DNA of 64,000 nucleotides from positions 9,052,001-9,116,000 of the forward strand of contig NC_092672.1 of NCBI RefSeq assembly GCF_964355755.1, read 5' to 3'. Positions 1-54,271 of the stretch are shown piece by piece. The notes below the pieces were generated by a model that did no database searches, was not told the origin of the DNA, and worked only from the letters and a program-made list of their open reading frames with translations. A program made the position numbers and the translations under genes. Source of the stretch: Antedon mediterranea. Its lineage: Eukaryota; Echinodermata; Crinoidea; Comatulida; Antedonidae. How positions within the stretch are numbered: the first letter of the stretch is position 1; each line of letters begins with the position of its first letter.

Positions 1-2259
1 AAAAATAAGTCCATTTAAATTAAAATAAGAATTTGTTATACAAATACTGTTTTAATTAAATTATGTTTAAATGAAATATTTGAATTGTTTTGGCCTCTAG
101 CTAGTATTGACCCTAATTTTAGCCTACTAAAGGCATAGAATAGTTTTTAGTTAGTATAGGCCTACCTAGGCCCTAGTAATATGGTTTATCGCAAATAGTG
201 TGCGCATGACGGGAAGGATTTGGGAGCAAATGCATGACGCGTACATACATGATTGTTGTACTGTCTAGACGTTTGCTCCCAAACTCTTCCCAATCCCATC
301 GGCATCATGGATTTTGCAATGACGTTCCTCTTGAATTCAAGCCAGTTGCGATAAATAAACCTTGTGTTCTTGATTTTTAAATAATTTTAACCCTTGGCCT
401 ACTAGGCCTAAAGCCTACAAGCATAGATGGAGCTATAAAATTATATAAAAAATATAAACTAATTTTATACTTTATATAGCTCCCCATCCATGGACCATGC
501 TACAACAACTAACCCTGCCTGGCTTAGGCTCTAGTCTTAGCTTAAATCTATCCCGAACGACTAGAGAATCTCTCCGCCTAGCCTAGGCCTAGCATAGGTA
601 CCTAGCCTAGCTAGCCTAGGCTACCTGTCCTGCTGGGCCTATTCGGTCCTATTCCTAACTAGCCACAAGCTAGTCTGGCTGGGGCCTAGCCTATCCCGCC
701 TAGCCTACTCCTAGCTAGCCTTCCTAGCTAGGCCTAGCCAGCACATAAACAACAATAGAAACGCGGGCGATGTAGCCTATAATATACTTTTACCTAAAAG
801 CAGAGCCACAATAAATTAGTGTAGTTGTTATACATTTTGTAAACGTGTTTATAGGCAGGCTGTACACCACACACGACACACGAAAAAATAATGTGGAGTC
901 CTGTGGAGACCACGTGTGTGCATTTGCTCATTTTGCTTGCGTCGCCTGTGAAAATCAAAAGACAGCCCTCAACTATTGAGGGCTCTCTTTATACAATTCA
1001 GAAGATTTCTCATAGTTTCAACACACTAATTTTAATTAAAATTTGTTAGCTACAGTAGGCCTACAGGCATATTCCCACAGAACTACTCATTCAGAAGCTC
1101 TATCTAGCGGAAGCTATAGTTCTAGAGGCTGACAGTTTTGGAATATTGTAAACTCGTCCGGGTCATGCTCAAATTACAAACCCCAAGGCACGTCTGGAAG
1201 AAGATAATTCGCCGTCAGATAATCATTGAATTATGATCAAAACAGTCCATAGTAAAGTTTTTGTTTGTAATAGAATACAATTTGTTCACATTTGAATGTT
1301 CTTTATAAATTATATAGCACCTCACTGGCCATTTATCACTTGTTGACATCTATACTTGATGAAGTTACCCCCAGACTTGACCTTAGCAATACAGATAAAC
1401 TATTAACATATTAGATATAATCCACATTGGTGGTATTATTTGCTTTGAATGATTTGAATTAAATAAATTCAAAGTAGGATACTTTTTTCTATTTGTGTGT
1501 GGTTAAGTGAGCTATACACTACTATAATTTAGTTTATGATTGTATTTTTGTTGTACAGTAGGCCACACTATATTTACGTATACAAAATGTTTACTACTGA
1601 TTGTTGCATGCTGGAAGTCGTCGTTAATTGATTGTCATACAGAACATTCGAGGACGGGCTTTTCCGTTTTGTGATTTCTATGGTTCCCGGTTCTCATGTT
1701 ATTAACCTTTTAATCGTTTTTCCGGGATGCGAAATACAGTAAGAAACAAAAACAAAAAAAAATCACTTATAAAAAGACAAAAAAAAAAACCAGTAATTTC
1801 AACCAATTTCCCTTAATTTCTAAATCTCATTTCTTCCATTTTGTCTTTTTATTGTTTTTCTTTGTATTACCAGAAACAGAAGATACAACACTGCTTAAAA
1901 CTAAATTCTTCTAAAATAATAGAGAACCTGCAGTCACATACATTTGGAAATGAATTGAACGTATCTCCAACGTCAACAGGTTAGTAGGCCTACCTTTACG
2001 AATCGCAGAAACCTTGCCTAAGTGTCATATTTGGCGCTGTAATTTTAATTATTTCCATAATAATTATAATACGAAAAGATGAAGATAAAATTTAAATGGA
2101 ATCATAATCTTAGTTAAGTTTCACTTTAAACTAGAGGTGTTCCCATAACTTAACGTAAATTTTGTTTCACTGAAAAGTTGAGTGTCCCCTGAAAAGAGAT
2201 GTTTCAGAAAAGGTAATTTCTAATTTCCATTTATTTTTATATTAAAAATCAAATATGTT
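1..2259. other. Intergenic region upstream of the ALP array, no gene seen
   Basis: No coding exon could be supported here. The part at about 500-740 is unusually rich in CTAG, CCTAGG and GGCCTA words. It also contains a small inverted-repeat element (183-362, listed separately) and a perfect hairpin at about 962-982 (arms AGCCCTCAA and TTGAGGGCT). The last few hundred bases (about 2130-2259) are diverged but alignable with 12590-12700 upstream of ALP-2, so the duplicated 5' region of the ALP genes begins before the well-conserved block. Confidence 0.6.
183..362. mobile_element. Small inverted-repeat element (MITE-like)
   Basis: The ends are inverted copies: GGTTTATCGCAA on the left and TTGCGATAAATAAACC on the right. 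A second inverted pair lies inside, about 212-230 (gggaaggatttgggagcaaa) against about 271-291 (tttgctcccaaactcttccc). There is no coding capacity. This is the structure of a non-autonomous foldback element; no target-site duplication was clear. Confidence 0.55.
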
Positions 2260-2599
2260 AAGATGGTTTATTGACCTGACTACTGTGCACAATTTGTGTA
2301 CATAATTTTTAATGGAAGGAGTGGTATGGTCTACCGCATTCCAGGACTTAGTTAGCACGTACTAAGGTGGAAATAAACGAAGAATATTCTAATTATGTTA
2401 CTTCATGACAGAAATTACTAATCTTCTGTATTATAAGTTTTGTTATTACGAACTTCCTGAAATAAACACGTATTTTTTTATACAGAGCGAAAACACGCCC
2501 TCTTTCATCAACAACTGTTATATAATAGTGTTATTTCTAGTAAACTGTTCATTATTGTTCTATGATATGATAGGACGCAGTGCCAGTGTTGAAATAAAG
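2260..2599 (+). promoter_or_regulatory. ALP-1 proximal 5' region, duplicated in front of ALP-2
   Basis: About 340 bases before the ALP-1 start codon match 12791-13145 before ALP-2 closely, while most introns of the two genes cannot be aligned. Shared parts include ATTGACCTGACTAC, a block reading CCGCATTCCAGGACTTAG, a GCCCTCT/GCCCCCT motif, and TATATAAT at 2519-2526, about 75-80 bases before the ATG. The latter is a plausible TATA box. ALP-3 and ALP-4 keep only short traces such as the CGCCCTCT or CGGCCCTCT word. Promoter function is inferred from conservation. Confidence 0.55.
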
Positions 2600-5500
2600 A
2601 TGTTTCGGTATTTTTATTCAGTTGTTTCATTGTCTCTTTGTTTCGTGTACGTTCAAAGTGAGTATAAATTGAAGTTATTTCTTTTTTAATAAGTTATAAT
2701 TCTAAATATTAACTTAATCATTTGAAGTATAAAACTAATTTAAAATATATGTATTGCGACATACTTAATTAATACTTAATGAAAGTTATGAATACTTCTT
2801 TATACTTACATTTTCCCTCTTACATATTTATATAATATTTGTATTTTTTAATGTATTTTTCAAATATAATAAATTAGCCTATAGTCGCAAATATTGTACC
2901 AGTATGTATACATACCTAATAATATTTCAAGATCGCTTATTGTTGATAACTTTCCCATCTATATTATAACATTACAAAATAACAAATTCTCATTTAAAAG
3001 AGATCCATATTGAATAAATAATGATTATCAATATTTTACATCAATACTATTTCTAAAAACAATGTTGGTAATGTTTGTTTTTTTAGCGGCAAAAATGCAT
3101 AATCTGAGGAGCCATGCACATCGAATGACTGCAGACGGTTGTAAGTAGACCTTTATCTCAATCTTCATAATAAGCTGAAAATAAAGTCTGATCTACACTA
3201 GCAAACTCTTTTTTTTTTTATAAACTCTGTGTTTGCTCACCCAATTCTGCAGCTGCCAAGAGGCTATGATTCGTATCTATGACTGTTGACAATCTACCTC
3301 ACGAGATGCAGAATAATTGTGGAATTCCCTACCAATTTTAAACAGTGTACTACGGTACTCTAAACTTCTCCAAGACCCAGTTGAAGTTTATTTTACCGGT
3401 TTTAATCATAAGTATACATTTACATTGAAACTAGTCAAACTATTGTTACAACTTGATTTTCCACCGTTTGAAGATACTCCTTAAATATACTGGAGGCTGC
3501 CCAACTGAGGATCACAAAAGATTGGTGACACTGAGCCTCATGGCAGCCTTCGGTAACAAAACCGTCTCCAACAACAAACAGTGGGCAACTCTGAGTTTTA
3601 AAAAAATTGTCTGATTACACACATGTTATCTGGTGGTTTGTTTCTCTTCGTTTATTTACAGTTCCAATAAATAAAAATAATGTTTATATCATAGGATATT
3701 TACAATTTTATTTTTATTCTCAGCTGATGAATACTCAAAGTATTGGAATGATTTGGCGGAAGATGAGCTGGAGAAGGCGTTACGTGCGCAAATTCTTAAT
3801 CAAAATGTTTCAAAAAATATGATATTGTTCGTTGGGAGTGGAATGGGCGTATCGACAGTGTCAGCAGGAAGAATTTTTGTAGGGCAACTTGCAGGCAAAA
3901 CGGGTGAAGAATTCCAACTATCATGGGAGACGTTCCCTCATGTAGCATTCAGTAAGGTGAGTTTAATAGGTAGGCCTAATACGATTTGTTGTTCAAATCA
4001 TACACCTTGACATACGTTGTTTGTATCCAGTACAAGATACTGTACTCTTACGTTTATGAGTTGCAACGGGTGTTGCAAGATTGAAAAAAACTAGCTGTAT
4101 CCGACATATACTAGTTTGGAACCAGATGACATTTTTTTGAACAACTTAAATGATACAGTATTCAATAAATTAAATCTTTTGTATTGTATACATTCGCTTC
4201 ATCCTCTCAGTGCTTCAAAAGTGTTCCTTTGGTGGATAAAATTATTTTTACCGAATGTCATCTGACATTATGATTGTTCTCTAATTGTTCTTCCTCATTC
4301 GGTAGTTTACTATAATGTCGTTTACACCAAAAACGTCGTTTACCAACGTTGTTTTAAATTAATTTAATTGTTTTACTGCACAGACTTATAACACGGATGC
4401 ACAAGTAGCTGATTCAGCAGGAACCGCGAGTGCTTTTTTAACCGGCGTAAAAACGAAGGCAGGTGTGGTAGGCCTAGATGATCACGCAGAGCGTGGAAGT
4501 TGTGCATCAACCGAATCAGCAGCAGTGGATTCAATTCTGCATCTAAGTCAAAGAGCAGGTTTGTTTAAGTTTACATACTGAGTGCAAGTACAAGGTGGAT
4601 TTTCTTTTTAAAAGTAAAAGATTTATAAATATTGCATTCTGGTTTGTAGGAATTCAAGGTGTTCAATCAATAATAAATACGTTTTTATCTGTGCATTTGT
4701 AGAAAAGTCGACTGGGATCGTTACAACTACGCGTGTGACTCACGGCACACCGGCTGCTGCATACGCAAAATCTCCAGATCGTAACTGGGAAAATAACAGC
4801 GACATACCGGATGCAGAGGCTGCATTAGGCTGCAAAGATATTGCTCTACAACTTGTGGAAGATGCTACAGGGATTCAGGTGAATATTTTTTTTATCTTTT
4901 GCCGCTATACGAGGGTTGACCATGGTAAATTAGCTGGGTTTGATTTTTTGTTTTAATACATCAGCTGCTGGTGTTTCTTATTAGCTGGACGTTTACTACA
5001 TTAGCGCTCGAGTATTAGTCAACATTAATGGTTGTTAGTAAATTAGCTGGCGTTTTCTAAGCGATTCTAACACGCATGATGAATCTATATTCTTGAAGAT
5101 ACAAATATGACACTAACTTAATGTATTCCATTGTATCATTTAGGTTGTTTTGGGAGGTGGCCGTCGTGAATTAACGCCAAGATCAACACGCGATCCTCAA
5201 AGCAGTGGGCATCATGGATATAGAACAGACAATCGAAATCTCATCGACGAATGGGTAGCACTACGGCCAGAAGAAACTACTCGTTATGTTTATAATAAAG
5301 GCCAATTCGACGATATTGATACGGACAAGATAGATTATTTGCTTGGTAAGACACTAAATAAAACTAAAAAATAAGAATTGATGATTTTGTCAACATTAGT
5401 AACTATTTGCTTGGTAAGAGTATTTAATATGACTTGATAATTTATTTACGACTTACATTAATAATACAATCATATCATGATCAATTAAACATATTTTTTT

Positions 5501-7742
5501 TGCAATTATTAAGAATGTTCGAAAACTGCGCATAGGTCTACATACCCAAAATTATTGTTACCGGTATACAATTACACTAAAAACTGATATCATAAGAACT
5601 CAAAAGTATACGTCTTTAGGAAAAGAATCTGCTAGTTTGAAAGGTGGTGATTGAAATGTAGTTATTATGAAAATAGTATTTTGTAACAGGAATTTTGATG
5701 TTGAAATTTTGATTACAGTAATTTTATCTCCAAGTAGGTCTATCGATCGTTTGACAAAACGTACTATAAAATACAAACATACGTGTATTTTGGAAAATAA
5801 CAAATTGTTTCATTTTACTTATTCGTCTTAAAAAACAAAAATACAAAGGTACAACAATAAGCTGGAAAACCAAAAGTGAACTAAATCATTGGCCTAAACC
5901 TTAGGCCTACATTGGCCTAAACCTTAGGCCTACATTGGCCTAAACCTTAGGCCTACATTGGCCTAAACCTTAGGCCTACATTGGCGTAAACCTTAGGCCT
6001 ACGTTGGCCTAAACCTTAGGCCTACTTTGGCCTAAACCTTAGACCTACATAGTTCCTTTTGTAGTAGAAACAGTGGCGTATAATTCGTAAATAAATGAAA
6101 TGGAACAAGATCGTGATCCTATAATTGTATAATTTTTAAGAGAAATGTGTCGTAAGGGAGATATGTGGCCTTACTTTTGAGTCATATTATTATTTGTGAG
6201 CTACAGTAGGCCTATATAAATATTTCCTTTGCTTTTTATAGGACTATTCGACCGTACACATATGAATTTTGAATCAGAGAGAGACACTTCATACGACGGT
6301 GACCCATCGTTAGAGGAGATGACAGAAAAAGCGATTCAGATATTACAAAAGAATGAAAAGGGATATTTCCTTATGGTTGAAGGTAAACATTATTTGCATA
6401 GAGTAATAATATATCTCAGTTGAAACGTATACAATATAAATTTCTCAAAGGTATACAGAGAAAATACAATTGTTACATCTGATCTTGTTTTATTAATACT
6501 TTACTGATATTAAAAAATTAAAAATATCAAAATTGCTCATGTCAGAGAGAGATTTTTAATTATACTTCTGTAATTTTTTTTTAATTGGCAGCATGGAGTG
6601 ACAGTTATTAGGCCTATTATTCAAATCATTTATTGGTTATATAACTTTACAATTACAATAGTCAAATTAATAAGCCTCAATATTCTTTGAAATGTTAATA
6701 ATTTATAACCTGTTAGTGGCGGTTTCATCGCTGTTGGTTGTCAACTGTAGAAAATAGAATAAAAAATAAATAAAATAATTTAAATATAACATTATTTGGA
6801 TATTTCAGGTGGTCGAATTGATCATGCTCATCACAGAGGAGAGGCGTATAATGCATTGAATGAATTGAATCAATTCCATTTGGCTGTTGCTAAGGCGAAA
6901 GAGATGACAAGTGAAGAGGACACATTGATTATAGTGACGGCAGATCACAGCCACACGTTATCATTTGGCGGTGATTACCCCGACAGAGGACATCCAATTC
7001 TAGGTACGAATCAACCACTTTATTACATCTGCACCATCTAAATGTTTACCTGTTTTTGTCACTTTTCCTCGTTTTTCAGTGGGTCAGAGTTGAATGTCTT
7101 ATGATTTTAAACTATCAATAATGTGTTTTTCCTCATTTAGGTAACAACATTGACGACAACGACGTATCTGATGACTTACCACATACCACATTGGCGTATG
7201 CAAATGGACCAGGTGGCGAGAAAGTATCTGAATCGTACAAAAAGTATGGTCACCGGCCAGATAACACAAGAGTTGATACAGGTAGAACAAATTTATTTAT
7301 AGTTCTTATATTTCTTAAAAGAAATGTAGGCGTATTGAATTAATACTATAATTCTAATGTAAATTGTATGATGATGTAATTGTCTGACGAGTTTTATAAA
7401 GATACTTACATAGCCGGCCTAGGTCCACCACACGACCCTTATGCAAAATGTATGAATCCGCGTGGCCTGGATTTCACTCATTTTGCTGGTACAGTTAGGC
7501 CTATAACCAAACTTTTATTAAATGTGTTTACAGAGGACGAAGAGTATGTGCGAGACGCATTAGTTCCACTCGACGAAGCTACGCATGGTGGTGAAGATGT
7601 TGTAATCTACGCCAGCGGACCAATGGCTCACTTATTCCACGGTGTCCATGAACAAAACTACATCATGCACGTAATGCAATACGCCTCATGTGTTGGTTAT
7701 AATAAAGAACATTGCGAGATCGTTGGCGGTGGAACCAAATGA
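2600..7742 (+). CDS. ALP: Alkaline phosphatase copy 1 (ALP-1), probable secreted pseudoenzyme
   Basis: Exons: 2600-2657, 3087-3140, 3724-3956, 4384-4558, 4703-4878, 5144-5345, 6242-6382, 6809-7003, 7141-7281, 7534-7742; all phases agree and give 527 aa. The start codon opens a hydrophobic signal peptide. The nucleophile motif DSAGTASAF (Ser126), THGTP with the following DRNW arginine, [17 protein letters not shown] and ATHGGEDV are all present. Two things are odd. The metal-ligand Asp of the usual GDGMG motif is Ser76 (VGSGMG, codon 3837-3839); in human placental and E. coli enzymes this Asp holds Zn and Mg. Compared with the other copies, one extra base near 7735 turns ACA-AAT-GAT into ACC-AAA-TGA, so the C-terminal GPI signal is lost although its relic follows in another frame. 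Family membership is certain; loss of activity and of the membrane anchor is inferred. Confidence 0.92.
5888..6048. repeat. 23-bp minisatellite, 7 units, in ALP-1 intron
   Basis: Seven head-to-tail units of attggcctaaaccttaggcc + tac fill exactly 161 bases. The first four are identical; the last three carry one or two changes (ggcgta, acgttgg, agacctac). The unit is built from two copies of the GGCCTA word common throughout this window. It lies in the intron between the fifth-from-last and fourth-from-last coding exons of ALP-1. Confidence 0.95.
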
Positions 7743-10137
7743 TTCGACTCTACATTATCAAACATTTCTGTCTTAGTACTATCATTTAGTGTTTATTAGC
7801 ACCTGACTTAGTATTATATATAGAAAGAATTATACTAAAAAGTGGTCCAGAATTGAGACCGTGGTCCCAAAATTTAATGGAATGGTCCTTGACCACATAT
7901 CTATCTATATTTTCATTTTGGTAAAGATCTTGTAATTACTTTTTGAGTAATGCTGCTAACAGGATTATTCCTCCTTGGCGGAGGTAAATGAAGGGTTATT
8001 GGTGCTTGGTGTTTAAAATTATAATGCTAACAATCATGTGTAGAGCTGAATCTGTAGTCAATAATTATCACACATTCGACGAATTGTTTTTATATTTCCT
8101 GTTTTTTGGCAGGATGGTTTGTTATTGTGTAAGGAAATTATAATTTAGTAAAAGGAAAATTACCAAACTCTCTAATAGTCAATGATCAGTTAATAAAACG
8201 TGAAAAAATTGGTAGGCCAACATAATTATTTTGGTAGGCCTACATAATACTGTTTGATGCCCAGCTTTAAAAAATACGGTTGCTGGTATTCCACCCGAAT
8301 TATATATTACTGCTACCCTCGTCATCTACCCTACTCTGAACTTATTAAATGTAAGTTTCTAGCAAACTTTTCGTATTGGCTGTCTAGCTTTCAAGGCAGT
8401 TACCTCATCCGTATTTTCAAAATGCTTTTGGTTATATTTTGGCCATTTACCTAAAATTAGTATTTTAAAAATACAATTTAATTACAGAGTCACTATTTTT
8501 CTATTTTCTATTTTGATTATAATTTTCCTATCTCCGTAAACAATAACAAACACACTGTACTCAGGGATCACAATCCATCTATAAAAAAAAAGTAAATTTT
8601 TACATATTAATATACTCAACAGTTTTCTTTATATATGCATGACATTAGGCCTACTACAGATATTCTATAACTAAACTCCATTTCATTAACAATATGAACA
8701 TGGTATTTTTTTTCCTACAGTAGCGATATTTTTGTTGTAACTTAAAATGGAATTCAAGTATTTAAAAGACTTTCTTAAGAGCCACTTTCTTTGCAAATTA
8801 TCGTCTTTTAATTGCATATTGTATTCCAAAACCAAGTTAAAATTATCTCAATAAACAATCAAACATTTTAATCAATTAATGAATCAATAATAATTCATTT
8901 CTCAAATAAAAATAAAATACAATAAAATGAGAAAAGGGGTACCAGACTGGAAGCTTAAGCTTTTAAATGTGGGTCCAGGCAACAATATTTAAGTAAGGTA
9001 AAGGTTAATGAATGTTGTCATCTGTAAATGTTATTTCCTATTTTTTATTATACAGTATTAAGTCAATAATTTTACTTTTATGAAAATGTTATATATAGTA
9101 ATATAGTATTTTGAATGTATTTTATTTGTTAATTTCTGAAAAGCGCCTCTTTAAGTTAAAACTAACCTCTTGTAATAAAGTAATGCTGCAATAAATAACA
9201 GCTATATAGCCTACACATTCTCAGAAAATGTAATTTTGTTCGTTGTGTACTCAGTGAACTGTTCTAGTCATCTCTGTCATTGTCTGCTTTGATAAAGTGA
9301 ATGAACTATCAGTTATTATAGCCAGAATGACCAATAACCAATAGAATCAGACATTTCTCAGCGAGGGTTTATTTGAGGAAAAATAGGTTTTAAGTAAAAC
9401 CATAAATTGAATTTGTGTGACAAATTTCATATGGTGTAAGAAACCAACCACAAGCGATGATTATGTCGCTTTCGCTTGCCATTGGTCAACTCTATTGTGT
9501 TACCGTACGTCTCTATCTAGTAGGAACCACATGATTTATGTCATGTCGAAAGAGTAGGCCTACTTGTCCAACTACATTAAGGTCAAATGCTCAAATGGAA
9601 TTCCCGATATATAATTATATACAAATTATGTAAAATATATGCACTTTCTTCAAAACCATGGAAATAGTGCATGCATGGTATAAGTAGTCACACTATGGAT
9701 ATCTAGAGAAAATTCATGTTATACGGTAGTATCAGGGAACGGTGGAACTCTTCTCTGGTAGTTTCATACATTTCTAAAGTATAAAGTATAATAAACCAAA
9801 CTACATAAAAATACACACAAATGGCCAGTGTGTACCTTTAAAAATCATGAACGGAAACTCTTACATAGCTCTGAGATATTCATTTCTGTAATTGTAATTT
9901 TATTAACATTCAATGATTTCATTTATAATTCACTTCAATCATCGGACGATAAATATAAGCCGACGATAGATAAACATGTATAATAGTTTCCTTGCGGAAA
10001 ACCAAAGTAATCGAAGCTATAGCCTAACTATTTAACAATTTATGCTGTCTTTGATATACTATATTTTTAAATCCAATCAAATGACATGATCATGAACAAA
10101 GAACTAAATAAAAAACGCTGTATCGTCACGATATCAT

Positions 10138-12240: not shown

Positions 12241-12790
12241 ATAATCCTTACTTTAAATAGATTAACTATTCCAAGAACAGGTACGTGTTGGCCCATTTAT
12301 TTGTTTTTTATACTGGGTAGCCTCTTCAGTCAAAGACTGTTCTCCCAGAGGGCGCAGTTATAAGTTGCTTTGTATGACAGTGGCTTTATGTAATACTTGT
12401 ACACCGGAGTGTATCTCGAAAGATGTATGGGTTTTTTCAAGTGCACATGAGCTAGATGTGTACACTGGACCTACAGTTTATAGTCCTTATCCGTGAAGAC
12501 CACTACCACCAGAACCATAGAGCAATTAGATCCTCGAACCCTTGATTATGTTACGACTACGTAGGCCTAATTAGGGTTACACTGTTAAAACATTTCACTG
12601 GAAAGTGTGTCTTTAATTAATTGAAGTGTCCCTTGAATAGAAATGTCTCAAAAGAGGTTATTTTTACTTTTTTTTTTGGGTTATTAAAAGTCAAATATTA
12701 TTTTTAGATTATTAGTTATTAGAAATGTTCCAAAAACCAAGAATTAGTATGTAAACTACAAACCAGAAGAACATTTTCAATCATTATTGT

Positions 12791-13145
12791 AAGATGTTTA
12801 TTGACCTGACTACATGTGCACAATTTGTGTAAATAAATGTTAATGGAAGGAACAGTATGGTCTACCGCATTCCAGGACTTAGTTAGCACGTACTAAGGTG
12901 GAAATAAATGAAGAATATTCAAATTATGTTATTTCATGACAGAAATTACTAACCTTGTGTAATATGAGTTTTGTTATTACGAACTTCCTGAAATAAACAT
13001 ATTAGACAAAGCGAAAACACGCCCCCTTTCACCATCAACTGTTATATAATTGTGTTATTTCTTGTAAACTGTTCATTATTGTTCTATGATATGATTCTAT
13101 GATATATGATTTATGATAGAACGCAGTGCCAGTGTTGAAATAAAT
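12791..13145 (+). promoter_or_regulatory. ALP-2 proximal 5' region
   Basis: Close copy of 2260-2599 before ALP-1, including ATTGACCTGACTAC, CATTCCAGGACTTAG, TTAGCACGTACTAAGGTGG and a TATATAAT at 13043-13050, about 100 bases before the start codon. A small insertion (atgattctatgatatatg) just before the start distinguishes it from ALP-1. Its role as promoter is inferred from position and conservation. Confidence 0.55.
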
Positions 13146-16100
13146 ATGTTTCGGTATTTTTATTCAGTTGTTTTATTTTCTCTTTGTTTCGTGTACGTTC
13201 AAAGTGAGTACATAATATTTAAGTTATTTATTTTGTCATTTTATGAGTGAAAATAGTTTTTTTTTCAGGGTTTTTTTCTATGGAAGTGATTAGGCCTAAG
13301 TTTATTAAAACTACAAAATGGCCTATTCAAAGTATGATTTTATTAATCTTCATTCTTCATGTTTTTGAGGGACAATACATCTTTAAAATTCTAATAATAA
13401 TGTTTTGGCCTAATCGAAATTTACAATTTCTTTTTTATATTATTATTTTCAGCTAATGAATACGCAAAGTATTGGAATGATTTTGCGGCAGATGAGCTAG
13501 AGAAGGCGTTACGTGCGCAAAATCTTAATAAAGAAATAGCAGAAAATACTATAATATTCATTGGAGATGGAATGAGCGTACCGACTGTGTCGGCAGGTAG
13601 AATGTTTGTAGGGCAACTTGCAGGCAAAACGGGTGAAGAATTCCAACTATCATGGGAGACGTTTCCTCATGTGGCATTAAGTAAGGTAAGTTATATTGGT
13701 ATATGACTGTGTTTGTACACATCATACACACCTTAGACACGTTGAAATTAAATATACGCATACGTTACCTATTCTGCAAGAGGTGTTGTTGAAGAAAATA
13801 ATTGGACTGGCTGTAGGCCTCTATGCTGTGACAGACACACAGATACGGCACCAAATAACATCGTAAAAACATTTAAATAACATAATAAATATAAAATCCT
13901 GTTGTTTAAAAGTGTGTGTATACGCCTAGTTGTTTAAAAGTGTTGGTCATTGGTGAAAAAATTACAGTGGTGTGTTCCATGCCATGCGCACTAAATTTCT
14001 TCTTCATTCTGTAATAGTATAGACTTAATTGCCCCAAGTCTGTATTGTTTTTTTTTTATTTATTTGATTTTATTTCAACCGCGATTTTTGTCTGAAAATA
14101 CAAACTAAAGTAATACACGTATGAAACGCCATATGTGCAAAAATATTTATATTTTTAGTAATATTAAAACAAAACTACAGTACTACTATAACTTACCATT
14201 AGATCTACATTCTCAAATTGCGTTTTTCAATTTTATTCATCCTTAATTAAAATTAATTATTTTACTGCACAGACTTACAACACGGATGCGCAAGTTCCGG
14301 ACTCAGCAGGAACCGCGAGTGCGTTTTTAACCGGCGTAAAAACGAAGTCAGGTGTGATAGGCCTGGATGATCACGTGGAATTTGGAAGTTGTGCATCAAC
14401 CGAATCAGCAGCAGTGGATTCAATTCTGCATCTAAGTCAAAGAGCAGGTTTGTTAAATTTGCATTTCATATTGATTTCAAATACAATGTCAATTAAGTTC
14501 TTCCACAATCCACAAAGTTTGTGCAAATTAATATAGTATAGGTTGTTTTTGTGGAAGGTGTTATTATTAAATTGTTTGTGTATGTTTTGTATACGGATGT
14601 ACTATCCAAAATAAAAATTAAATGAATGTGGTGGTCTGTGGTTCCATAAATCAGGAACGTAGCAGTATAGTAGGCCTAGTGTAAGTAAACTCTGATTTGG
14701 TGGACTTATAATCACCCAGTAATCAATGCCTGTTTGTTTTAGGAAAGTCGACTGGGATTGTCACAACTGCGCGGGTGACTCATGCCACACCGGCTGCTGC
14801 ATACGCAAAATCTCCAGACCGTGGATGGGAAAATAACAGTGACATACCAGATGCAGAGGCTGCCTTAGGCTGCAAAGATATTGCTTTGCAACTTGTGGAA
14901 AATGCTACAGGAATTCAGGTGAATATTTAACCAATATTCAATCACAAATTATTATTTTGAATATGATCAAACGTAGTCAACTTTGCACGATAGAACGAGC
15001 CAAAGCGTGTATGTGGGTAAGCTTGGTTCCTACTAGTGACGCACCGTAACGCAACCTACGCAACGTAAGGAAATTTCCTTCCGATAATTGTGTTTGGCTC
15101 GTCTGTTTACAGCACTGTTGGGTCGTCGGTTCCCACGTGTGATTTCACAATACAGCATTTTGCGTCAATACGTCGCTGCGTTGCGTTACGTTGCGTCGCC
15201 AGTGGGAACCACACTAGGGGTTGTTAAATCCTATTAAAATAACGAGCTGATCAATTGCGATTAACCATCCCGCAACAATGTATACCTCCCTCTAATATGT
15301 ATGCAGCCACAAAAATGTAATAATCCAAAATGCTCATAATCTCGGGTAATGATTAAGAGTAGACTGTTTTAAACAAAAATGTATTGCGCATACTTAATCT
15401 CGATTCCTGGAAAAAACAAAATCAAAAACTTACGGTATTTTATTGTACCATTAGGTTGTTTTGGGAGGTGGCCGACGTGAATTAACGCCAACATCAACAC
15501 CTGATGCTCAAAGCAGTGGGCGTTTTGGATATAGAACAGACAATAGAAATCTCATCGATGAATGGGTAGCACTACGACCAGAAGAAACTACTCGTTATGT
15601 TTATAATAAAGGCCAATTTGACGATATTGATACGGACAAGATAGATTATTTGCTTGGTAAGACACTAAATAAAACTAAAAAATAAGAATTGATGATTTTG
15701 TCAACATTAGTAACTTATATGTCTGTAACATTACTATTAAAATAACGTTTGAAATGTAGATTTCTTATTTAGGCAATGTCAACATTGCTAAAGCAGTTAC
15801 TACTGTATACCTGTACTGCAATAATATAACGACTAATTTCAGTTGTTTCTTCAAAACACTGCATGATAGGCTAGCATTAACATTTATAAAGCTCCGTCTA
15901 CACTATCTATCAAACTAGTTTGACAAAAAACGTGATGTGATATGCTCAAATATGGTAGTGATTTGACATCATCATATCTACATGGGCAAATCACATTTTT
16001 TGTCACATAACGTGTGGTATTGTAGACAAGGCTTAGTCCATGATTAAAAAGTTAGTATAATAATATACTTATATAATATACGAAACAAACGAGGTTTATT

Positions 16101-17888
16101 CTGTAATTATGAAAATGGGGAGGTATACGACGTACGCCGAGAAATCCTCTCTTGTTTTCTATATTAATAAATAAATTAGAACATTAAAGTAACCTGGTTA
16201 ATACACTGCTATAATCTTATTCTATAATGGATGCCTTGTCTTATACGTATAGAATTGACTAATCTACTTATTAATTTGCTTTTGATAGGATTGTTCGACC
16301 GTACACATATGAATTTTGAATCAGAAAGAGACACTTCAGACGACGGTGACCCGTCGTTAGAAGAGATGACAGAAAAAGCGATTCAGATATTACAAAAGAA
16401 TGAAAATGGATATTTCCTCATTGTTGAAAGTAATAATAATAGTTCATTCTTATATAATCATTATATAAGCAAGCTGTCAATGCGCTAAACATTATTACCC
16501 CAGTCATTTTTTTGGTCAAACACGTATGGAAACATACTCCCATAATGCAGCTAGTATCAGCGCAAAGTTGTTTCTTGATCTAATCAAGTTCCCATTTATA
16601 CACCTGGGTGGAGAGAGGCAAACGTAAGTAAGTATCTTGCCTAAGGATACAAGCAATGCGGCGAGAGGTGGATTCGAACCTCGATCTCACGATCAACATA
16701 CTGCGCCACACGCTTTCACAAGTAAATTATATACATTCTGTCGATTTAGATATTTGTATAGAGATAAAACATAATTGATTGATCTATGTTAGAATAGAAA
16801 TTAGATTTTGAATACTGCTAGATTAAAAACAAACTATTCAACTAGTCAAAGAACACATCGATAAATGGTTACTTTAATAACTTATATCTTTACAATACTG
16901 ATGTATTCATCTTATTACGTAATATCGTTTGAATATTCCAGGTGGTCGAATCGACCATGGTCATCACAGAGGACATGCGTACGATGCATTGAATGAACTG
17001 AATCAATTACATTTGGCTGTTGCTAAGGCGAAAGAGATGACAAGTGAAGACGACACATTGATTATAGTGACGGCAGATCACAGCCACACATTATCATTTG
17101 GTGGCGACTCCAGTAGAGGGAACCCAATTCTAGGTAAAGCTCTGTTAAGCTTGGTTCCCACTAGAACGTAACGCAAGGACGTAAACGCAACGCAAGCGTT
17201 TTAACCAATGACAGGCGAAGTTATAGACAGTTTTGACAATTTCATCCCCATAGTGTTTATGAGAGTTGAATTGCTTAGAATTCTGTTTATATTTCTATGT
17301 TTATATATTTATGCGTTCATCTTCTTTAGGTCTTGCTGACGGTTCTGTCGGATCAGATGGTTTACCATACACCACATTAGCGTATGCAAATGGACCAGGT
17401 GGCGAGCAAGTATTAAAATCGTTCAAGGAAAACGGTCGCCGACCAGATAACACTAAAGTTGATACAGGTAAATTCATTTACGTTCAGTTTAACTATAAAA
17501 AAAATACAAAATTCCTCAAGGTTGTTAATAATTGGATAGCTACTTGGGATTTTTTTTACTTTTATGATTGATTTTTTACCGTAGCTAAATTTCTTTAATG
17601 TTCTTTACAGAGGACAAAGAATATAAGCAAGACGCTTTAGTTCCAAGAGAATTAGAAACGCATGGCGGTGAAGATGTTGCAATCTATGCTAGCGGACCAA
17701 TGGATCACTTATTCCACGGCGTCCATGAACAAAACTACATCATGCATGTAATGAAGTACGCCTCATGTGTTGGTTATAATAAAGAACATTGTGAGATCGT
17801 TGACAATGGAACAAATGATGCCTCTGTACATTATCCAACATTCCTTACATTTATCATGTCTATCTCAGTATTCAGGTGTTTTCTCTAA
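13146..17888 (+). CDS. ALP: Alkaline phosphatase copy 2 (ALP-2)
   Basis: Exons: 13146-13203, 13453-13685, 14273-14447, 14743-14918, 15455-15656, 16289-16429, 16942-17133, 17330-17467, 17611-17888; phases agree and give 530 aa. Hydrolyses phosphate monoesters outside the cell. Signal peptide at the start; metal-ligand Asp58 in IGDGMS; nucleophile Ser108 in [16 protein letters not shown] plus DRGW arginine; [22 protein letters not shown]. The two cysteines expected near SCAST and LGCKD and the C-terminal pair (ASC, EHC) are present. After DNGTNDAS comes a hydrophobic tail ending SVFRCFL, a likely but short GPI-anchor signal. Odd points: GMG is GMS next to the metal ligand, and the small second exon of ALP-1 and ALP-4 is absent, with no room for it in the 249-bp first intron. 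Probably active; membrane-anchored by inference. Confidence 0.93.
15019..15217. mobile_element. Harbinger-like MITE, in ALP-2 intron
   Basis: Left end AAGCTTGGTTCCTACTAG and right end CGCCAGTGGGAACCACAC are inverted copies. The inside carries GTAACGCAAC-type words in both orientations, as in the copies at 17148, 43434, 54485, 54515 and 54836. No coding capacity. Confidence 0.7.
15890..16033. mobile_element. Palindromic MITE, GTCTACACTAT family, in ALP-2 intron
   Basis: Left end AAGCTCCGTCTACACTAT, right end ATTGTAGACAAGGCTTA; the middle reads caaatatggtagtgatttga. The whole element is an imperfect palindrome. Related full or half copies occur at 31707, 32139, 33483, 38785 and 49480, so this is a repeated family. 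Confidence 0.75.
16495..16722 (-). mobile_element. tRNA-derived SINE, antisense copy, in ALP-2 intron
   Basis: On the minus strand this reads GTGTGGCGCAGTATGTTGAT, GTGAGATCGAGGTTCGAATC, attgcttgtatccttaggca, gtatcttgcc-type text and aggtgtataaatgggaac. The A-box-like and B-box-like (GGTTCGAATCC) words and similarity to 10138-10375 support a tRNA-derived SINE. It lies between the exons ending at 16429 and starting at 16942. Confidence 0.75.
17148..17231. mobile_element. Half copy of the Harbinger-like MITE, in ALP-2 intron
   Basis: Begins AAGCTTGGTTCCCACTAGAA and continues through gttttaaccaatgacaggcg to ttatagacagtt. It is almost identical to the left halves of the elements at 43538 and 54515 but the right half is missing. 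Confidence 0.75.
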
Positions 17889-19366: not shown

Positions 19367-22300
19367 ATGAATATGTTTCGGTCCTTTTATTCCCTTGTTT
19401 TATTGTCTCATTGTATCGTATACGTTCAAAGTGAGTAATCGAGTGATTTCTTATTTTGAACTTTTTATGTTGAACATGGCCATGGAGGTTTAGTTTAAAC
19501 TGCAATACAGTAGTGCAATATGGATAACCACGGAATATATACTTGTGAATGTGAACAATGACGATACAGGATATCTAGGACATTAGAAGATAAAGAAAGA
19601 TGTAGGAATAAGGCAGGACCAAAATCTCAGTTACTTTACTTAAAAGGTTTTGCTGATCACTTTAGGTGAATCGTAGGCCTAATATAAGGAATATGTAATT
19701 AGTTTTATTATTGAGTCTACAAGATCTAAATAACCTAGATCATTCACAAATTAATTTTTGAATTTTGGGAAACTGTTTAGATTAATAATTGATTTGAAAT
19801 ATGCAATTAATACCTGCATGATGTAATGACAAGTAACAAATAGATTCACTAGAATTTATACATCGCACTGTGTGCAAAATAAATGGAGATACTGTATCAC
19901 AGTACCATAACACGATATTAAGTGAAAGAGGATATATCATTAATACAGTAATAGTCACTTGAACATTAGACTCACAGGCCTTTATCTGTAAAAGCTTTGG
20001 GAAGTTTCCACATGCAGTGTTTAAAAATATTAGCGGGCAGAGAATTTCCATTTAGGCTAAGTTACATTACCTATTAAGATAAAGGTACACAAATACACTG
20101 TTGTTATTATTTAGAAACAAACACTAAGAATATATGTTATGATAAAAGAAGAATTTCAACAGTATCACACTAATTTTGTAGTTATTATCTACTATATTAA
20201 AAAGTACCTGACAAAGTAATCAATGTAAACATTCGCTTGGCGGGTTATCTATCTAAATTTGCACAGTGGTCTCAATTGTGATTGCCGGTAACACAAATCG
20301 TTATTCCTATGACTGCATGTCCATAAATTGTATAGCAAAACCAACAAACATGTGCGCACAGACTCAAAATATATTATAGGCTACAGTATTCTAAGTAAAT
20401 TAAGGGTACATTAAAAAAAGTAGGCAGATGCCCGATAAGATAAAACCTTGGGCGAGTCTAAACAAACGACAGAGAGCAATTAAAAAAAAATACAGGGTGT
20501 GAACAGGGACAATACAAGACAACCACGGGGGGAGGGGGGACGAACGGAAAAACAGCTATTCTGAGACAGCAGATCATGTCTTGATTAAGGACTGAAATTG
20601 ATACAAACATTTCATCAACAAAAAAGTTCTAATTTCAGCTGATGAATACGCAAAGTATTGGAATGACTTGGCGGCAGATGAGCTGGAGAGGGCATTGCGT
20701 TCACAAGACCTCAACAAAAATATAGCAAAAAATGTTATAGCATTCATTGGAGATGGAATGGGCGTAGCAACAGTGTCAGCAGGAAGAATTTATGTAGGGC
20801 AACTTGCAGGAAAAACGGGTGAAGAATTCCAACTATCATGGGAGACGTTTCCTCATGTGGCATTAAGTAAGGTAAGTTAGAGAATGTTGCTCTATGAACA
20901 TAAGCATGTGCTTAATACATTAAAGGGATATACAGCATTACCCACTGCCATTACTAAATCCAAGAAATTATGTAGTATGTTTAAGCGGATATTAGCCCTT
21001 GGTGGCATTTGCAGCAATAAAGAAATTGAATTGAATTGAATAGAAATGGTCAAAAAAATATCTATTTCCAATGGTCCATTCTAAATACGCACTCTGTGAG
21101 ATTCATTTTACAAAGTATGTTTAGGTTACAAGAATATTAACCAATTAGAAGTTTTAAATTTTGTTTTTCCATATCATGGACAAACCAATATATACCTGAT
21201 CAATCAAATTCCACTTTCGGCATAATGCAACCCTTACTGCACAGACTTACAACACGGATGCACAAGTAGCTGACTCGGCAGGAACCGCGTGTGCTTTTTT
21301 GAGTGGCGTAAAAACGAAGGCAGGTGTAGTAGGCTTAGATAATCACGTGGAACGTGGGAATTGTGCATCAACAGAATCAGCAGCAGTGGATTCAATTGTG
21401 CATCTAAGCCAACGAGCAGGTTTGTTAAAGTGTGCATAAGTATAGGTACAATGTGGAGGAATGGAATTTTTTTAAACCGATAATGTAACAAACTTCTACA
21501 TTTTAGGAAAGTCGACTGGGATTGTTACAACTGCGCGGGTAACTCATGCAACACCGGCTGCTGCATACGCAAGATGTCCAGAACGAGACTGGGAAAGTAA
21601 CAGTGACATACCAGAAGAAGAAGCTGCCTTAGGCTGCAAAGACATTGCTTTGCAACTTGTGGAAAATGCCACAGAAGTACAGGTGAATATTTAACTCACG
21701 AATAGTATTGATCACACTTGGTTTACTTGAATGTTAACTTTTCACGACCCGACTCATATTTGTTTAAAGCGTGTACCGTACTGTATGATTTTAGATATGT
21801 GTATCTTATTATTAAAAGTAATACCAGCGATTGCATCACTACCGAAAGCAAACATTTACTCAACTGAAGCGTGCAAGCACAAAACCATCTACTAAAAAAA
21901 GTGTATATTTGGATAACTGTTTGGAAAACGTTTATTGCGCATGCTTGTCGCGATCTTCTGACATTAACAGGGCCGGGAATACTTTTATCTTTAGGTTGTT
22001 TTAGGAGGTGGCCGACGTGAATTTATGCCAAACACTACAGCTGATCCTCAAAATAAGAAATATTTTGGAAAAAGGACAGACAAACGGAATCTCATCGACG
22101 AATGGGTAGCACTACGGCCAGAAAATACTACACAATACGTTTATAATAAAGGCCAATTTGACGATATTGATACGGACAAGATAGATTATTTACTTGGTAT
22201 GTGTCTAAAACCAAGACCATTTATAGAGTTGAATTTATAAATAGAATCAGGTATTTTTTAAATGAAGGTTATACGAGTTTTATATAAAATGAAAACAATA

Positions 22301-23322
22301 CCAAAAAATCATGATGACCATGATCATCTAATTAACCTTCTTTTCTTCGTCTTCCCTCATTGTAATTTTTATTGTAATAATATTCGTTAAATACACACAT
22401 TCGGAATTATTCATCTCAACACAATATCTGTATACGAGATCATAACAGATGTACATTATAGTTTGAATAAAGTGTTGTAAACAGTAAATATTCTCCAAAC
22501 TAAAAGTACCGGGTCTGGTAACCACAGATTGACTCTTTTATCAGTTATATGCTCGTTCTATAAATTGATGACTAGTTTGTTAATATGAAAGCAAGTTGAT
22601 CGAATCAGTACCGTTGTAATGTATGATCATTCTGGAAATTATCTCACAAAGTTTAATACTATGGGATATGAATTTTGTAGGATTATTCGACCATACACAT
22701 ATGGATTACGAATCAGAGAGGGACACTTCATACGACGGTGACCCATCCTTAGAAGAGATGACAGAAAAAGCGATTGAGATATTGAAAAAGAATGAAAAAG
22801 GATATTTCCTCATGGTTGAAGGTAAATACATCCGTTTTGTTTAAAATATATTAGGCATTATAGGTCCAAAGGCAAAATACTGAAAAAATGACAATGCTGT
22901 GGTTATCAGTGGCTGGATCTCAATGAAGATACATAAAAAAAGCGAAAGGCTAAATCAAAACGATAAAGTTAAACAGCCAGAAAAGGTAGCAGAGATTTCG
23001 GGCAACACCTTATCAGTGCAAGTGAAGGAGATATATGAACAGGGGTTGTATATTTGACTGTGTTATTTGAATATTCTAGGTGCTCGAATTGACCATGGTC
23101 ATCATAATGGTCAGGCGTACGATGCATTAAACGAACTGAATCAATTACATTTGGCTGTTGCTAAGGCGAAAGAGATGACAAGTGAAGACGATACATTGAT
23201 TATAGTGACGGCAGATCACAGCCACACGTTTTCATTTGGTGGTTACCCTGACAGAGGAAATCCAATTCTAGGTACGAAACATCCCCTTTATTTACCTGAA
23301 CACATGCCAATGTTTCTTGCAA

Positions 23323-23353
<31 letters not shown>

Positions 23354-24300
23354 CAAAAAACACACTTACCTTGTATGGGTCAAAAAATGACAAGAGAGAA
23401 CATTATTTTGGTGTGCTACAGTGGATCCGAGTTAAATATTGTGTATATTATTTCAATATTATCAGTAAATGCCCTATGTTTAAACACTTCGTGCGTTCCT
23501 TCATTCAGGTCTAGTCAATACCGGCGTCGGATCAGATGGATTGCCGTACACCACATTGGCTTATGCAAATGGACCAGGTGCCAACAAAGTATCTCATTCG
23601 TTCAATGCAACTAATCAGCGACCAAATAACACTGGCGTTGATACAGGTGAACTAAATTAATGTATATCTCTGCTCCAACTATAGGAAGCCTCAAGATTAA
23701 ACAATGTAGAATAATTGAAGACTTTTAAAAATGTCTGTTATTTCTAATAATCCAATGTACAATGTAAAGATGTCTGTCAAAGATCTTGAATCATTGATCG
23801 AAATGTTAATAGCCTGAAATACAAAAAAAACGCAACATTTATTAGATAATAGTTGTCAATTGTTATATAGTTAATAGTTATTCTGATTAGCAATAGTGGC
23901 TACAGTGGATAGATTTAAAACAATCGCACTTTTATGATTTATCTCAGTTTTATCGTGTACTCTTGGTTGCATAGACTTAGGCTTAAACACATTTCCTTTA
24001 TTGTTTACAGAAAACAAAGACTACGAACAAGACGCTTTAGTTCCATTAGCTTTAGAAACGCATGCCGGTGAAGATGTTGCAATCTACGCCACCGGACCAA
24101 TGGCTCACTTATTCCACGGCGTCCATGAACAAAACTACATCATGCATGTAATGAAGTACGCCTCATGTGTTGGTTATAATAAAGAACATTGCGAGATCGT
24201 TGACAATGGAACAAATGATGCTACTGTACATTATCCAACATTTCTTACATTTATCATATCCATCTCAGTACTATTGATTCAAAGGTTTTCTGATTTATAG
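19367..24300 (+). CDS. ALP: Alkaline phosphatase copy 3 (ALP-3)
   Basis: Exons: 19367-19430, 20639-20871, 21245-21419, 21507-21682, 21995-22196, 22681-22821, 23080-23271, 23509-23646, 24011-24300; all phases agree, giving 536 aa. The start chosen (MNMFR...) leads a hydrophobic signal peptide; a second in-frame ATG six bases on is possible. Metal-ligand Asp60 in IGDGMG, nucleophile Ser110 in [16 protein letters not shown] plus ERDW arginine, [11 protein letters not shown] (Ala where other copies have Gly), TADHSH and ETHAGEDV are present. The tail after NGTNDAT is hydrophobic ([12 protein letters not shown]) and fits a GPI signal. A poly-C tract at about 23322-23340 lies in an intron. AATAAA words follow the stop at about 24310 and 24331. 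The small second exon is missing. Predicted active ectophosphatase. Confidence 0.93.
20970..21042 (+). mobile_element. LINE 3' end fragment with GAATT tail, in ALP-3 intron
   Basis: Reads AGTATGTTTAAGCGGATATT, agcccttggtggcatttgca, then AATTGAATTGAATTGAAT. A second copy of the same text with the same short tail repeat is at 35648-35721. Repeated 3' ends carrying simple tails are typical of 5'-truncated LINE insertions. No reverse transcriptase part is left. Confidence 0.6.
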
Positions 24301-29366: not shown

Positions 29367-32300
29367 ATGAACATGTTTAGGTCCCTTCATCCAGTTGTGT
29401 TATTGTCTCTCTGTTTCGTGTACGTTCAAAGTGAGTATAAAATTTATCTTTTCTTTACTTTAAGTTAAACCACATTTAGAGGCTTACTCTAAACTAACGT
29501 CCATGCTATAGTAGTGCAAGAAACATATTTAGATAAAAATGTAATTAATAGTACATGCTGTAAATGTCTACAATACCCATAGTAACAACTCAGCTTGGAA
29601 ATACACAACAATTATTTATACGGGCATCAATAATAAGTGCATTGTTCAGGCAATCATCAGGCAGACGGCATAACCATTGGCCCAGCTTGAGTCTAATCTG
29701 GTTCAGGCCCTTGAATATATTAAAACAGGGTAGTAGTGTTGACATAAGTCAACCATGTTGACCCCTACAGTTTACTTGCTGAAACATGAGTAGTGTTTGT
29801 ACATAGTACATTAGTAAAGATAAATCAGCAGCCTTTCTCACAATGATACTGATACACTATCTTTATATTGGTCTTTGAGCGGCAAAAGTTGAAATAAAAG
29901 ATATCATCAAGCGGCAATATTAGTTAATATACAGTATATTAACTTTTTTTAAGTTTGTGTCATAAAAAAATTAATCTATTCATTATTATAGTTTATGCTA
30001 TGTCTATTCTTTCATCAGGGATACATTTTTAATGAATACGTTTTAGCTTTAGTGATTAAACTATAATGAGACTTATCAATTTGATACTTATAATCAGTTA
30101 CAGTTATTGACACAAGTGATTACTACGTGGTGGTTGACTCTCATATTGCTAACATTAGACTGTTTTTTCAGTAAAGTTGTTTCTTTATGTGATTACCAAG
30201 TGGGGTTATAGAATAGGGGGTATGCGACCATCCGATCCATCCGTCGTCATTGCAAAATCTCCCATTTCACAACATTGCACCCGTGGCGATGTTGCTGCAA
30301 TTACATGTGGGGTTTTTGTTTACATTCACAGCGAAAAAAAATCACCACTTGCAGCTTCTTCAAATTTTATTTTCCTTACTATTAGTATTTTTCGTCGTAC
30401 TATTTTATGGTCGTTTATAATCGGTATTCATTCCATTTTCCATCGAAAGTGCATCCGTCATTCCGAATCCGATCGTCGTTTTGGGTGTATTAACCTATAT
30501 ATAACCTTCTTTATTTGAGTATTAGGCTCGACTATCATGCACTGCTGTTTCGACTTTTGCTATACAACCATGCATCTTCATTCTACCATCAACTTTATTT
30601 ATTTATTATAATTTGTTAACAGAAATGAATTGTGATATTTGAATTATGATCGAATTTTTCACGTTGACATTCTGAAGTGTAAAGCTGCCATTCGACAATC
30701 AACCTTTATTATCAACATTGTAAACAGCTGCTTTGTCTTAAAATAACAATATAATTTCTTCTTAAAATTCAGAGTCATATTTTGAATCGTAAACGAGAAC
30801 GCAAAAACACGATGTAGTTACATTACTTTTCCAATTTACGACCGGTAACAGTAAGCGGAAAACCGCGTAGCTTGTCCCACGTAGAATCTGTATCTATCAT
30901 CAATCATGAGCGAAAACCGCCCGTCCGCTCCACGCTGTGTGTATAATTTGTATTACCGTTACCGTTGTAGTCAGAAGACGCGATACTGTACACTTTTTAT
31001 TGACCCTAGACTGGTCTTTTTTCCGGCCGCAATTCTATATTTAGTAGGAATTGCTTTACATGTATCAGTCATTCGAGAAGGGATTATTCCTCCGTGATCT
31101 AATTAAGACGACAATCAACGAATTCATTGACAATTATATTCGAACATCGTATTCTATTTTAACAATTTATCTGGATTATATTATTTTCGATTAACTTGGA
31201 AAGATTCAATTTTGATATTGATACAATGTTATTTTATAATTAATACATGTCTATTTGAATTAGAAGAATTTACATAGTAAATAAAATATAAAAATAGTTT
31301 AAAATGATTATATTCACACACTAATGTGGTAATCGTAATGTCTACCTGTGTACTATTGACACCTCACAACGTTAACACTATCTTGGTCTGTTCATCCTTA
31401 TACTTTCGATGTCAAATAATGCTGTCTCTGATTATACATACCCCTAATGGACGCAAATAGTAATACAAACACATTTATATAGCGAAATGGACTTGTATGA
31501 TATGCGCTTTTCTATAAGAATTCATTGAAATATTCTTTTCTGTAGTATTTACCTACCAGTATATTTCTGAGCATCTGTTAACCATCATTATGCAATTGCA
31601 ATGACATGATGATTCGTTGACTTTCACTTTTTTAGTTATATATGTTTGTTTTGAAACATTAAAGATGTTGATAATTCAAATGACCGACCCCATTTACGAC
31701 ATAATGTAAAGCTCTGTCTACACTATGAGACTATGTGACAACAAATGCGATGTGCCGATATAAGGACATGATGATAAGATCAATTTTTATTGAAGGACCA
31801 ACTTACTGGAATAAACTCCAGTCTACTCTAGAACAAAATCACATGACCTCACTCCCTATGCTAAAGTACAATATTAAAAAGATGATATTTGAAACATATT
31901 GCTATAGCTACTATTGCTACTGAAAAATTGGGGTTGTAAACATTTAGCTTAATATCACTTTGTTGTGTTTGTGTTTTTTTCTTTTTCTGTCTCAAAATGT
32001 CTTTTTTTGTTAATGTAATGCGTTCGTATAATAGGTTTTATGTTTATGCTTAGGACTACAAAGACAAGCCACTTTGGCTTCTGTGTATCTTAACCGATAA
32101 ACTTTGTAAAATATTGAATATTGAATAAATGTTGTTGTAACATCACTACCATATTTTAAGCATATTACTATCATATTTGGGCACTTCACACTTTTTTGTT
32201 TGTTTGCTAGTTTATACTGTGTAGACAGAGCTTATAAGCTAAAGGCGTATGATCCTATTGCCAGTTTTTCGTCTTGTGTGTCAAGTGTCAACCTGACTTC

Positions 32301-53144: not shown

Positions 53145-53382
53145 CTTTATAAAAGAAAAACAAAAACGTTTAAACTAATCTTAATTGAATTTTTTCGCAT
53201 ACTAATTTGCTTTTTACATTACAAGCGAAGATAAGAGTCTTTGTAGGCTAAAGCCCATTAAAGTATCGTCTGTTTGGTAGAATTCCGAAAAGTCAATTTT
53301 GAGCGTTGAGACTTGATTACATAGAAAGCAAAGCTCTTGCGGGTGGAAGTTAATTTAACAGTTGGTCTCGCACATCAAATAG

Positions 53383-54271
53383 TATGGAACGCCGTTTACG
53401 CAACATTTCGATGATATGAATTTTATGACGCGATATGTGAATGAAATGCATCGATATGAATTGAATGGCGTAATATATGAATGAAATGTTTTGAATTGAA
53501 TGCTTTGAATTGAATGTTTTGAATGAAATGTTTTGAATGAAATGTTTTGAATTGAATGTTTTGAATAAAATGTTTTGAATGAAATGTTTTGAATGAAATG
53601 TTTTGAATTAAATGTTTTGAATGAAATGTTTGAATTGAATTGAAAAGTCAAACTATTGGCGGCGTATGTCATTCCCGCTCGCGATTTTTTTTCAACCTCT
53701 TAATAGGCCTAAGCATGGGTACCCTCATCTCCTTTCAACGCTGTCATCAATTTGAATCCTTTACAGAGACTCCCTAACAGACCTGAAACATTGGAATACA
53801 TATTTTCGAACCCAGGTCTGTTATGATTCTCTGTAAAGGCAGCGTGGAAGAAAGGAGATGAGGGTACCCAGGCTTAGGCCTAATAGGTTGAGAAAATAAT
53901 CGCGAGCGAGAATGACATACGCCACCAATAGTTTGACTTTTCAATTCAATTCAAACATTTCATTCAAAACATTTCATTCAAAACATTTCATTTAAAACAT
54001 TTCATTCAAAACATTTCATTCAAAACATTTTATTCAAAACATTTCATTCAAAACATTTCATTTAAAACATTTCATTCAAAACATTTCATTCAAAACATTT
54101 CATTCAAAACATTTCATTCAAAACATTTCATTCAAAATATTCAATTCAAAGCATTCAATTCAAAACATTTCATTCATATATCGCACCATATAATTCATAT
54201 CGATGCATTTCATTCACATATCGCGTCATAAAATTCATATCATCGAAATGTTGCGTAAACGGCGTTCCATA
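53383..54271. mobile_element. 889-bp near-complete palindrome with 6-bp target duplication
   Basis: Left end TATGGAACGCCGTTTACGCA and right end TGCGTAAACGGCGTTCCATA are exact inverses. Pairing continues through two arrays of a 14-bp unit (TTTTGAATGAAATG and its complement) and a GCTCGCGA-containing block to a loop of about 27 bases near 53786-53812. AAATAG stands on both sides (53377-53382, 54272-54277). The right array is longer than the left. No coding capacity; it is a foldback transposon in a long intron, or between two genes, of the mosaic locus. Confidence 0.9.

What the first reader, a model, noticed from the sequence alone, without database searches (positions are those of the whole stretch)
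3837..3839. ALP-1 has lost a metal-binding Asp (Asp to Ser76)
The motif GDGM is conserved in copies 2-4, but copy 1 reads GSGM. The Asp at this place binds Zn and Mg in known alkaline phosphatases. With all other active-site motifs kept, this looks like a pseudoenzyme, possibly with a binding role.
Basis: partly seen in the sequence, partly recalled or inferred. Interest (0 to 1): 0.65.

Follow-up and report, generated by a model that had tools for sequence, protein, structure and literature searches.

The report
Alkaline phosphatase copy missing metal ligand
One of four neighbouring alkaline phosphatase genes in this animal has lost the aspartate that bridges two of the enzyme's metal ions, and also its membrane anchor, yet the gene is intact and still under selection, so it is probably a secreted and nearly or fully inactive relative that was kept for another job.

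Summary
Codon 3837-3839 is AGT (Ser); copies 2-4 and the genome's only other alkaline phosphatase (ALP) gene, on contig 8, have Asp there. The residue equals Asp60 of human TNAP and Asp51 of E. coli PhoA, which bridges Mg and Zn2. Among bacterial relatives found by profile, 91 of 91 with the position readable have Asp, down to 25% identity. Of 43 columns invariant in 82 close bacterial relatives, the other four copies and mouse TNAP keep all 43. ALP-1 alone breaks two, both at the Mg site: Asp60 to Ser and Ala172 to Gly. The gene is not an obvious pseudogene: nine coding exons, canonical splice sites, no early stop, 340 bp of upstream sequence shared with ALP-2, and omega 0.34 on its branch (omega=1 rejected, p=9e-6; same as its sisters). 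Best reading: a selectively maintained, secreted pseudo- or very weak phosphatase. Loss of activity is inferred from E. coli mutants, not shown. Very recent decay cannot be excluded. A new variant of a known kind, of moderate interest.

The parts
3837..3839 (+). codon AGT = Ser (TNAP Asp60 / E. coli Asp51 position) in ALP-1
2600..7742 (+). ALP-1 gene; coding exons 2600-2657, 3724-3956, 4384-4558, 4703-4878, 5144-5345, 6242-6382, 6809-7003, 7141-7281, 7534-7742; 509 aa, all introns GT-AG, no premature stop
   Evidence: PF00245 E=1.5e-135
3087..3140 (+). optional in-frame 54-nt microexon of ALP-1 ([18 protein letters not shown]); its inclusion makes the residue Ser76
   Evidence: inferred from splice sites, phase and a 48-nt counterpart in ALP-4
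4744..4746 (+). GGC = Gly at TNAP Ala172 (between His171 and Mg ligand Thr173); invariant Ala in 82 close bacterial relatives
7578..7580 (+). GCT = Ala at TNAP Glu452, two residues before Zn ligand His454; usually Glu
7735..7770 (+). lost GPI-signal tail: one extra C at 7735/7736 gives stop TGA 7740-7742; a 16-nt deletion between 7769 and 7770 removes the segment that codes the hydrophobic stretch in ALP-2 to ALP-4
2259..2598 (+). upstream region of ALP-1, 85% identical over 363 aligned columns to the ALP-2 upstream region 12790-13144
13146..17888 (+). ALP-2, 530 aa, Asp codon GAT at 13566-13568, GPI-type tail present
19373..24300 (+). ALP-3, 534 aa, Asp codon GAT at 20752-20754, GPI-type tail present
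29373..43236 (+). ALP-4, 531 aa, Asp codon GAT at 39600-39602, GPI-type tail present

Best explanation
ALP-1 is a tandem duplicate of a GPI-anchored animal alkaline phosphatase that has become a secreted, soluble, selectively maintained protein with a dismantled Mg site and a weakened Zn2 site. Shown by sequence: the bridging Asp is Ser, the invariant Ala beside a Mg ligand is Gly, the GPI-type tail is gone, and the rest of the protein evolves under constraint. Inferred: Mg is not held, Zn2 is held more loosely (Asp378 and His379 remain), phosphomonoesterase activity is very low or absent, and the protein works as a pseudo-phosphatase. The role could be soluble binding of phosphate esters or partnering with sister copies in mixed dimers; which of these is not known.
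For: Codon confirmed. Asp60 position occupied by Asp in 91/91 readable profile-found relatives and in all other copies. Of 43 columns invariant in 82 bacterial relatives, ALP-1 alone breaks two, both at the Mg site; ALP-2 to ALP-5 and TNAP break none. The Pfam profile scores Asp 4.5 bits above Ser at this site. Asp60 bridges Mg and Zn2 in TNAP (PMC10329691) and Asp51 does so in E. coli (PMC4438272); Mg removal (E322Y) lowers kcat/KM 88,000-fold (PMC4438272). GPI-type tail lost by two separate indels. Open frame, canonical splice sites. omega(ALP-1)=0.337 against 0.344 on other branches, omega=1 rejected (LRT 19.8, p=8.7e-6), and likewise without exon 5 (p=3.4e-5). Neutral evolution over the branch would give about 7.4 stops; 0 of 1500 simulations had none.
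Against: No activity, metal, expression or population data. omega averages over the whole branch, so constraint may have ended recently: neutrality over only the last tenth of the branch leaves a 43% chance of no stop. Exchange of sequence with sister copies can keep a frame open; a 59-nt identical intron tract shared with ALP-2 shows some exchange. All other ligands and the nucleophile remain, which is unusual for an old pseudoenzyme. The number of ALP-1-only changes at positions shared by the other animal sequences is no higher than in ALP-2 (8 against 8).
Confidence: 0.6

Rival explanations
1. ALP-1 is a gene in early decay: the metal ligand and the anchor were lost recently in a redundant copy and no stop codon has arisen yet.
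For: Two losses in one copy; redundancy with three tandem sisters and a fifth gene. Neutrality over the last 10% of the branch would leave no stop with 43% probability, over the last 25% with 10%.
Against: omega on the whole branch equals that of the sisters; all splice sites and the signal peptide are intact; upstream region shared with ALP-2; the anchor region carries two indels while the rest of the frame carries only in-frame ones.
Confidence: 0.2
2. ALP-1 is still an enzyme: a two-zinc, Mg-free phosphatase with low monoesterase activity or a shifted substrate range, acting as a soluble hydrolase.
For: Nucleophile Ser110, Arg184, the Zn1 ligands tested, and Asp378/His379 are kept. Mg-free E. 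coli PhoA keeps about 7e3 M-1 s-1 (PMC4438272). Sphingomonas SPAP works without a third metal (PMC3145672).
Against: Unlike E322Y, this change also removes a Zn2 ligand; the mechanistic papers read here treat Asp51 as a ligand of both ions, and SPAP keeps the equivalent Asp (Asp49). No replacement Lys is evident at the site.
Confidence: 0.13
3. Sequencing or assembly error, or a rare allele of the sequenced individual.
For: One assembly only, no reads available here (inference; no tool result bears on it).
Against: The change spans three adjacent bases without breaking the frame; it comes with independent ALP-1-only changes A172G, E452A and the lost tail.
Confidence: 0.07

Closest known systems
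Human/mouse tissue-nonspecific alkaline phosphatase (TNAP, ALPL)
   Same: Fold family and about 50% identity; nucleophile, Arg184, and Zn/Mg ligands other than Asp60
   Different: Asp60 is Ser, Ala172 is Gly, Glu452 is Ala; no GPI-signal tail; Ca-site Glu235 is Gln (shared with ALP-2 to ALP-4)
E. coli PhoA engineered at Asp51 (PDB 1URA, 1URB carry Asn51)
   Same: Same position replaced
   Different: Engineered Asn in a bacterial enzyme; here a natural Ser in an animal gene
Sphingomonas SPAP, an AP without a third metal (PMC3145672)
   Same: Lacks the Mg site
   Different: SPAP lost the Thr155 and Glu322 equivalents, keeps the Asp and gains a Lys; ALP-1 keeps Thr and Glu and loses the Asp
ALP-2 (sister copy in the window)
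   Same: 85% protein identity, shared upstream region and exon layout
   Different: Keeps Asp, Ala172, Glu452 and the GPI-type tail

Membership tests
Alkaline phosphatase (PF00245) | Sequence match over the whole domain | tested here: met
   452.9 bits against cut-off 24.4
Alkaline phosphatase (PF00245) | Ser nucleophile, catalytic Arg, Zn1 ligands Asp337/His341/His454, Zn2 ligands Asp378/His379, Mg ligands Thr173/Glu332 | tested here: met
Alkaline phosphatase (PF00245) | Asp bridging Zn2 and Mg (GDGM motif) | tested here: not met
   Ser; 91/91 readable relatives have Asp
Alkaline phosphatase (PF00245) | Phosphomonoesterase activity | not testable with these tools
   needs protein
GPI-anchored animal ALP | C-terminal hydrophobic GPI signal | tested here: not met
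   protein ends GGGTK; ALP-2 to ALP-4 have a hydrophobic stretch
Pseudoenzyme | Loss of an essential active-site residue | tested here: met
Pseudoenzyme | Gene maintained by selection | tested here: met
   omega 0.34, neutral model rejected, averaged over the whole branch
Pseudoenzyme | No catalytic activity | not testable with these tools
   needs assay
Pseudogene | Disrupted frame or splice sites in the conserved domain | tested here: not met

The most novel reading that the evidence does not exclude
A natural alkaline phosphatase pseudoenzyme: a secreted, anchor-less ALP without the metal-bridging Asp, kept by selection as a soluble binder of phosphate esters or as a regulatory partner of the active sister enzymes.
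Probability: 0.5. Interest if true: 0.55.

Novelty: new variant of a known kind. Interest (0 to 1): 0.45.

Why it matters
The bridging Asp is one of the most conserved positions of alkaline phosphatases. A natural, selectively kept copy without it would be a test case of what the fold does when chemistry is removed, and of whether soluble inactive subunits regulate active phosphatases. Searches of the held open-access papers found no described alkaline phosphatase pseudoenzyme; absence in that library is weak evidence.

Tried and rejected
Simple pseudogene: rejected for most of the branch by omega and by absence of stops. One-base sequencing error: the change needs three bases or two indels. 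Anchor loss as a one-base artefact: in the frame without the extra C a stop still comes ([12 protein letters not shown]) before the hydrophobic segment. A-to-I RNA editing of AGT gives GGT (Gly), not Asp, so editing cannot restore the ligand. Relatives by pattern search with the animal proteins: none in bacterial genomes or viral contigs; a plasmid-borne relative from Sphingopyxis opened the way. Identifying the animal through a mitochondrial COX1: none in the assembly. The contig-8 copy was left out of the codon model because it is only about 55% identical.

Full report
The site. The window holds four tandem alkaline phosphatase (ALP) genes on the + strand, and the genome (354 Mb, 18 contigs) has one more, on contig C8; no other match to PF00245 was found. 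Codon 3837-3839 is AGT in copy 1 and GAT in copies 2-4; the C8 copy has Asp too. I built spliced models for all five. Copy 1 has nine coding exons, GT-AG introns throughout, a signal-peptide-like start and 509 residues.

What the residue does. By alignment with mouse TNAP the position is Asp60. In the human TNAP structure D60 bridges Mg and Zn2 (PMC10329691). In E. coli D51 is a ligand of both ions (PMC4438272; PMC3145672). PDB entries 1URA and 1URB carry Asn at this place. E. coli PhoA without Mg (E322Y) is 88,000-fold slower in kcat/KM but keeps about 7e3 M-1 s-1 (PMC4438272), so 'inactive' should be read as strongly impaired until measured.

How unusual it is. I assembled two bacterial panels. 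The first (82 loci) came from a pattern scan seeded with a plasmid-borne relative: 80 of 80 readable have Asp, but one of the two patterns contains that Asp, and only 7 readable loci were found independently of it, all Asp. The second came from profile searches of about 1000 genomes in two classes and a phylum and has no such bias: 91 of 91 readable have Asp, at 25-53% identity. The panels share a few genomes. In the first panel 43 columns are invariant. ALP-2, 3, 4, 5 and TNAP keep all 43; ALP-1 breaks exactly two, Asp60 to Ser and Ala172 to Gly, the latter between His171 and the Mg ligand Thr173. In the second panel Ala172 is 91 of 92. So the two breaks concentrate on one functional unit, the Mg site. 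Glu452 to Ala is less telling, since relatives vary there.

The second loss. ALP-2, 3 and 4 end in a hydrophobic stretch ([15 protein letters not shown] and similar) of the kind that directs GPI anchoring. ALP-1 stops at GGGTK. One extra C causes the stop, and a separate 16-nt deletion removes the hydrophobic codons, so the loss does not hang on one base. No other frame downstream gives such a tail joined to the protein. ALP-1 should therefore be secreted and soluble. Whether a GPI anchor is in fact attached to ALP-2 to ALP-4 was not tested beyond hydrophobicity.

Selection. Leaving out exon 5, where a 59-nt identical intron tract points to exchange with ALP-2, changes nothing (p=3.4e-5). Exons 2-3, which hold the site, give 0.27 (p=0.004). 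A neutral ALP-1 branch would carry about 7.4 stops; none of 1500 simulations had zero. But a neutral last tenth of the branch would leave no stop in 43% of simulations. The 340 bp upstream of ALP-1 are 85% identical to those of ALP-2 although most introns no longer align, which hints at a kept promoter.

The mutation. Against all sisters the change is AGA to GAG over the last base of the Gly codon and the first two of the Asp codon. It is either three adjacent substitutions or a +G/-A pair. It is the only run of three adjacent ALP-1-only differences in the alignment.

Mechanism and verdict. Shown: Ser at the bridging site, Gly beside a Mg ligand, loss of the tail, intact and constrained gene. 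Inferred: no Mg, looser Zn2, very low monoesterase activity, secreted soluble protein. Proposed without direct evidence: binding of phosphate esters or mixed dimers with sisters. I put 0.6 on a maintained pseudo-phosphatase, 0.2 on early decay, 0.13 on an enzyme with altered or residual activity, 0.07 on error or rare allele. It is an ALP by homology but fails two features of the animal type (bridging Asp, anchor signal). I file it as a new variant of a known kind.

Limits. No reads, expression, structure or orthologues were available; the animal was not identified.

Noticed in passing
window 3087-3140 and 38727-38774: In-frame 54- and 48-nt microexon candidates with similar peptides in intron 1 of ALP-1 and ALP-4, between signal peptide and enzyme domain; ALP-2 and ALP-3 were not searched for one systematically.
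   Followed up: partly
window 5346-5404 and 15657-15715: The first 59 nt of intron 5 are identical in ALP-1 and ALP-2 while most other intron sequence does not align; likely gene conversion.
   Followed up: partly
window 13572-13577: ALP-2 reads GDGMS instead of GDGMG and has as many ALP-2-only changes at shared positions (8 of 191) as ALP-1.
   Followed up: partly
ALP-1 to ALP-4, TNAP position 235: A Ca-site Glu of TNAP is Gln in all four tandem copies but Glu in the contig-8 copy.
   Followed up: no
window 29431-39486: ALP-4 has a first intron of 10 kb, far longer than in the other copies.
   Followed up: no
window 5887-6050: 23-bp tandem array (CATTGGCCTAAACCTTAGGCCTA, 7 copies) in ALP-1 intron 5.
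   Followed up: no
window 51170-52088, 53478-53635 and 53949-54176: Long TCA/CGT-rich tandem array and two arrays of a 14-bp unit that look like reverse complements of each other.
   Followed up: no
window 48308-57852, minus strand: Exons with EPTP, WSC, kringle and weak PAN matches: one or more secreted or receptor-like genes next to the ALP cluster.
   Followed up: partly
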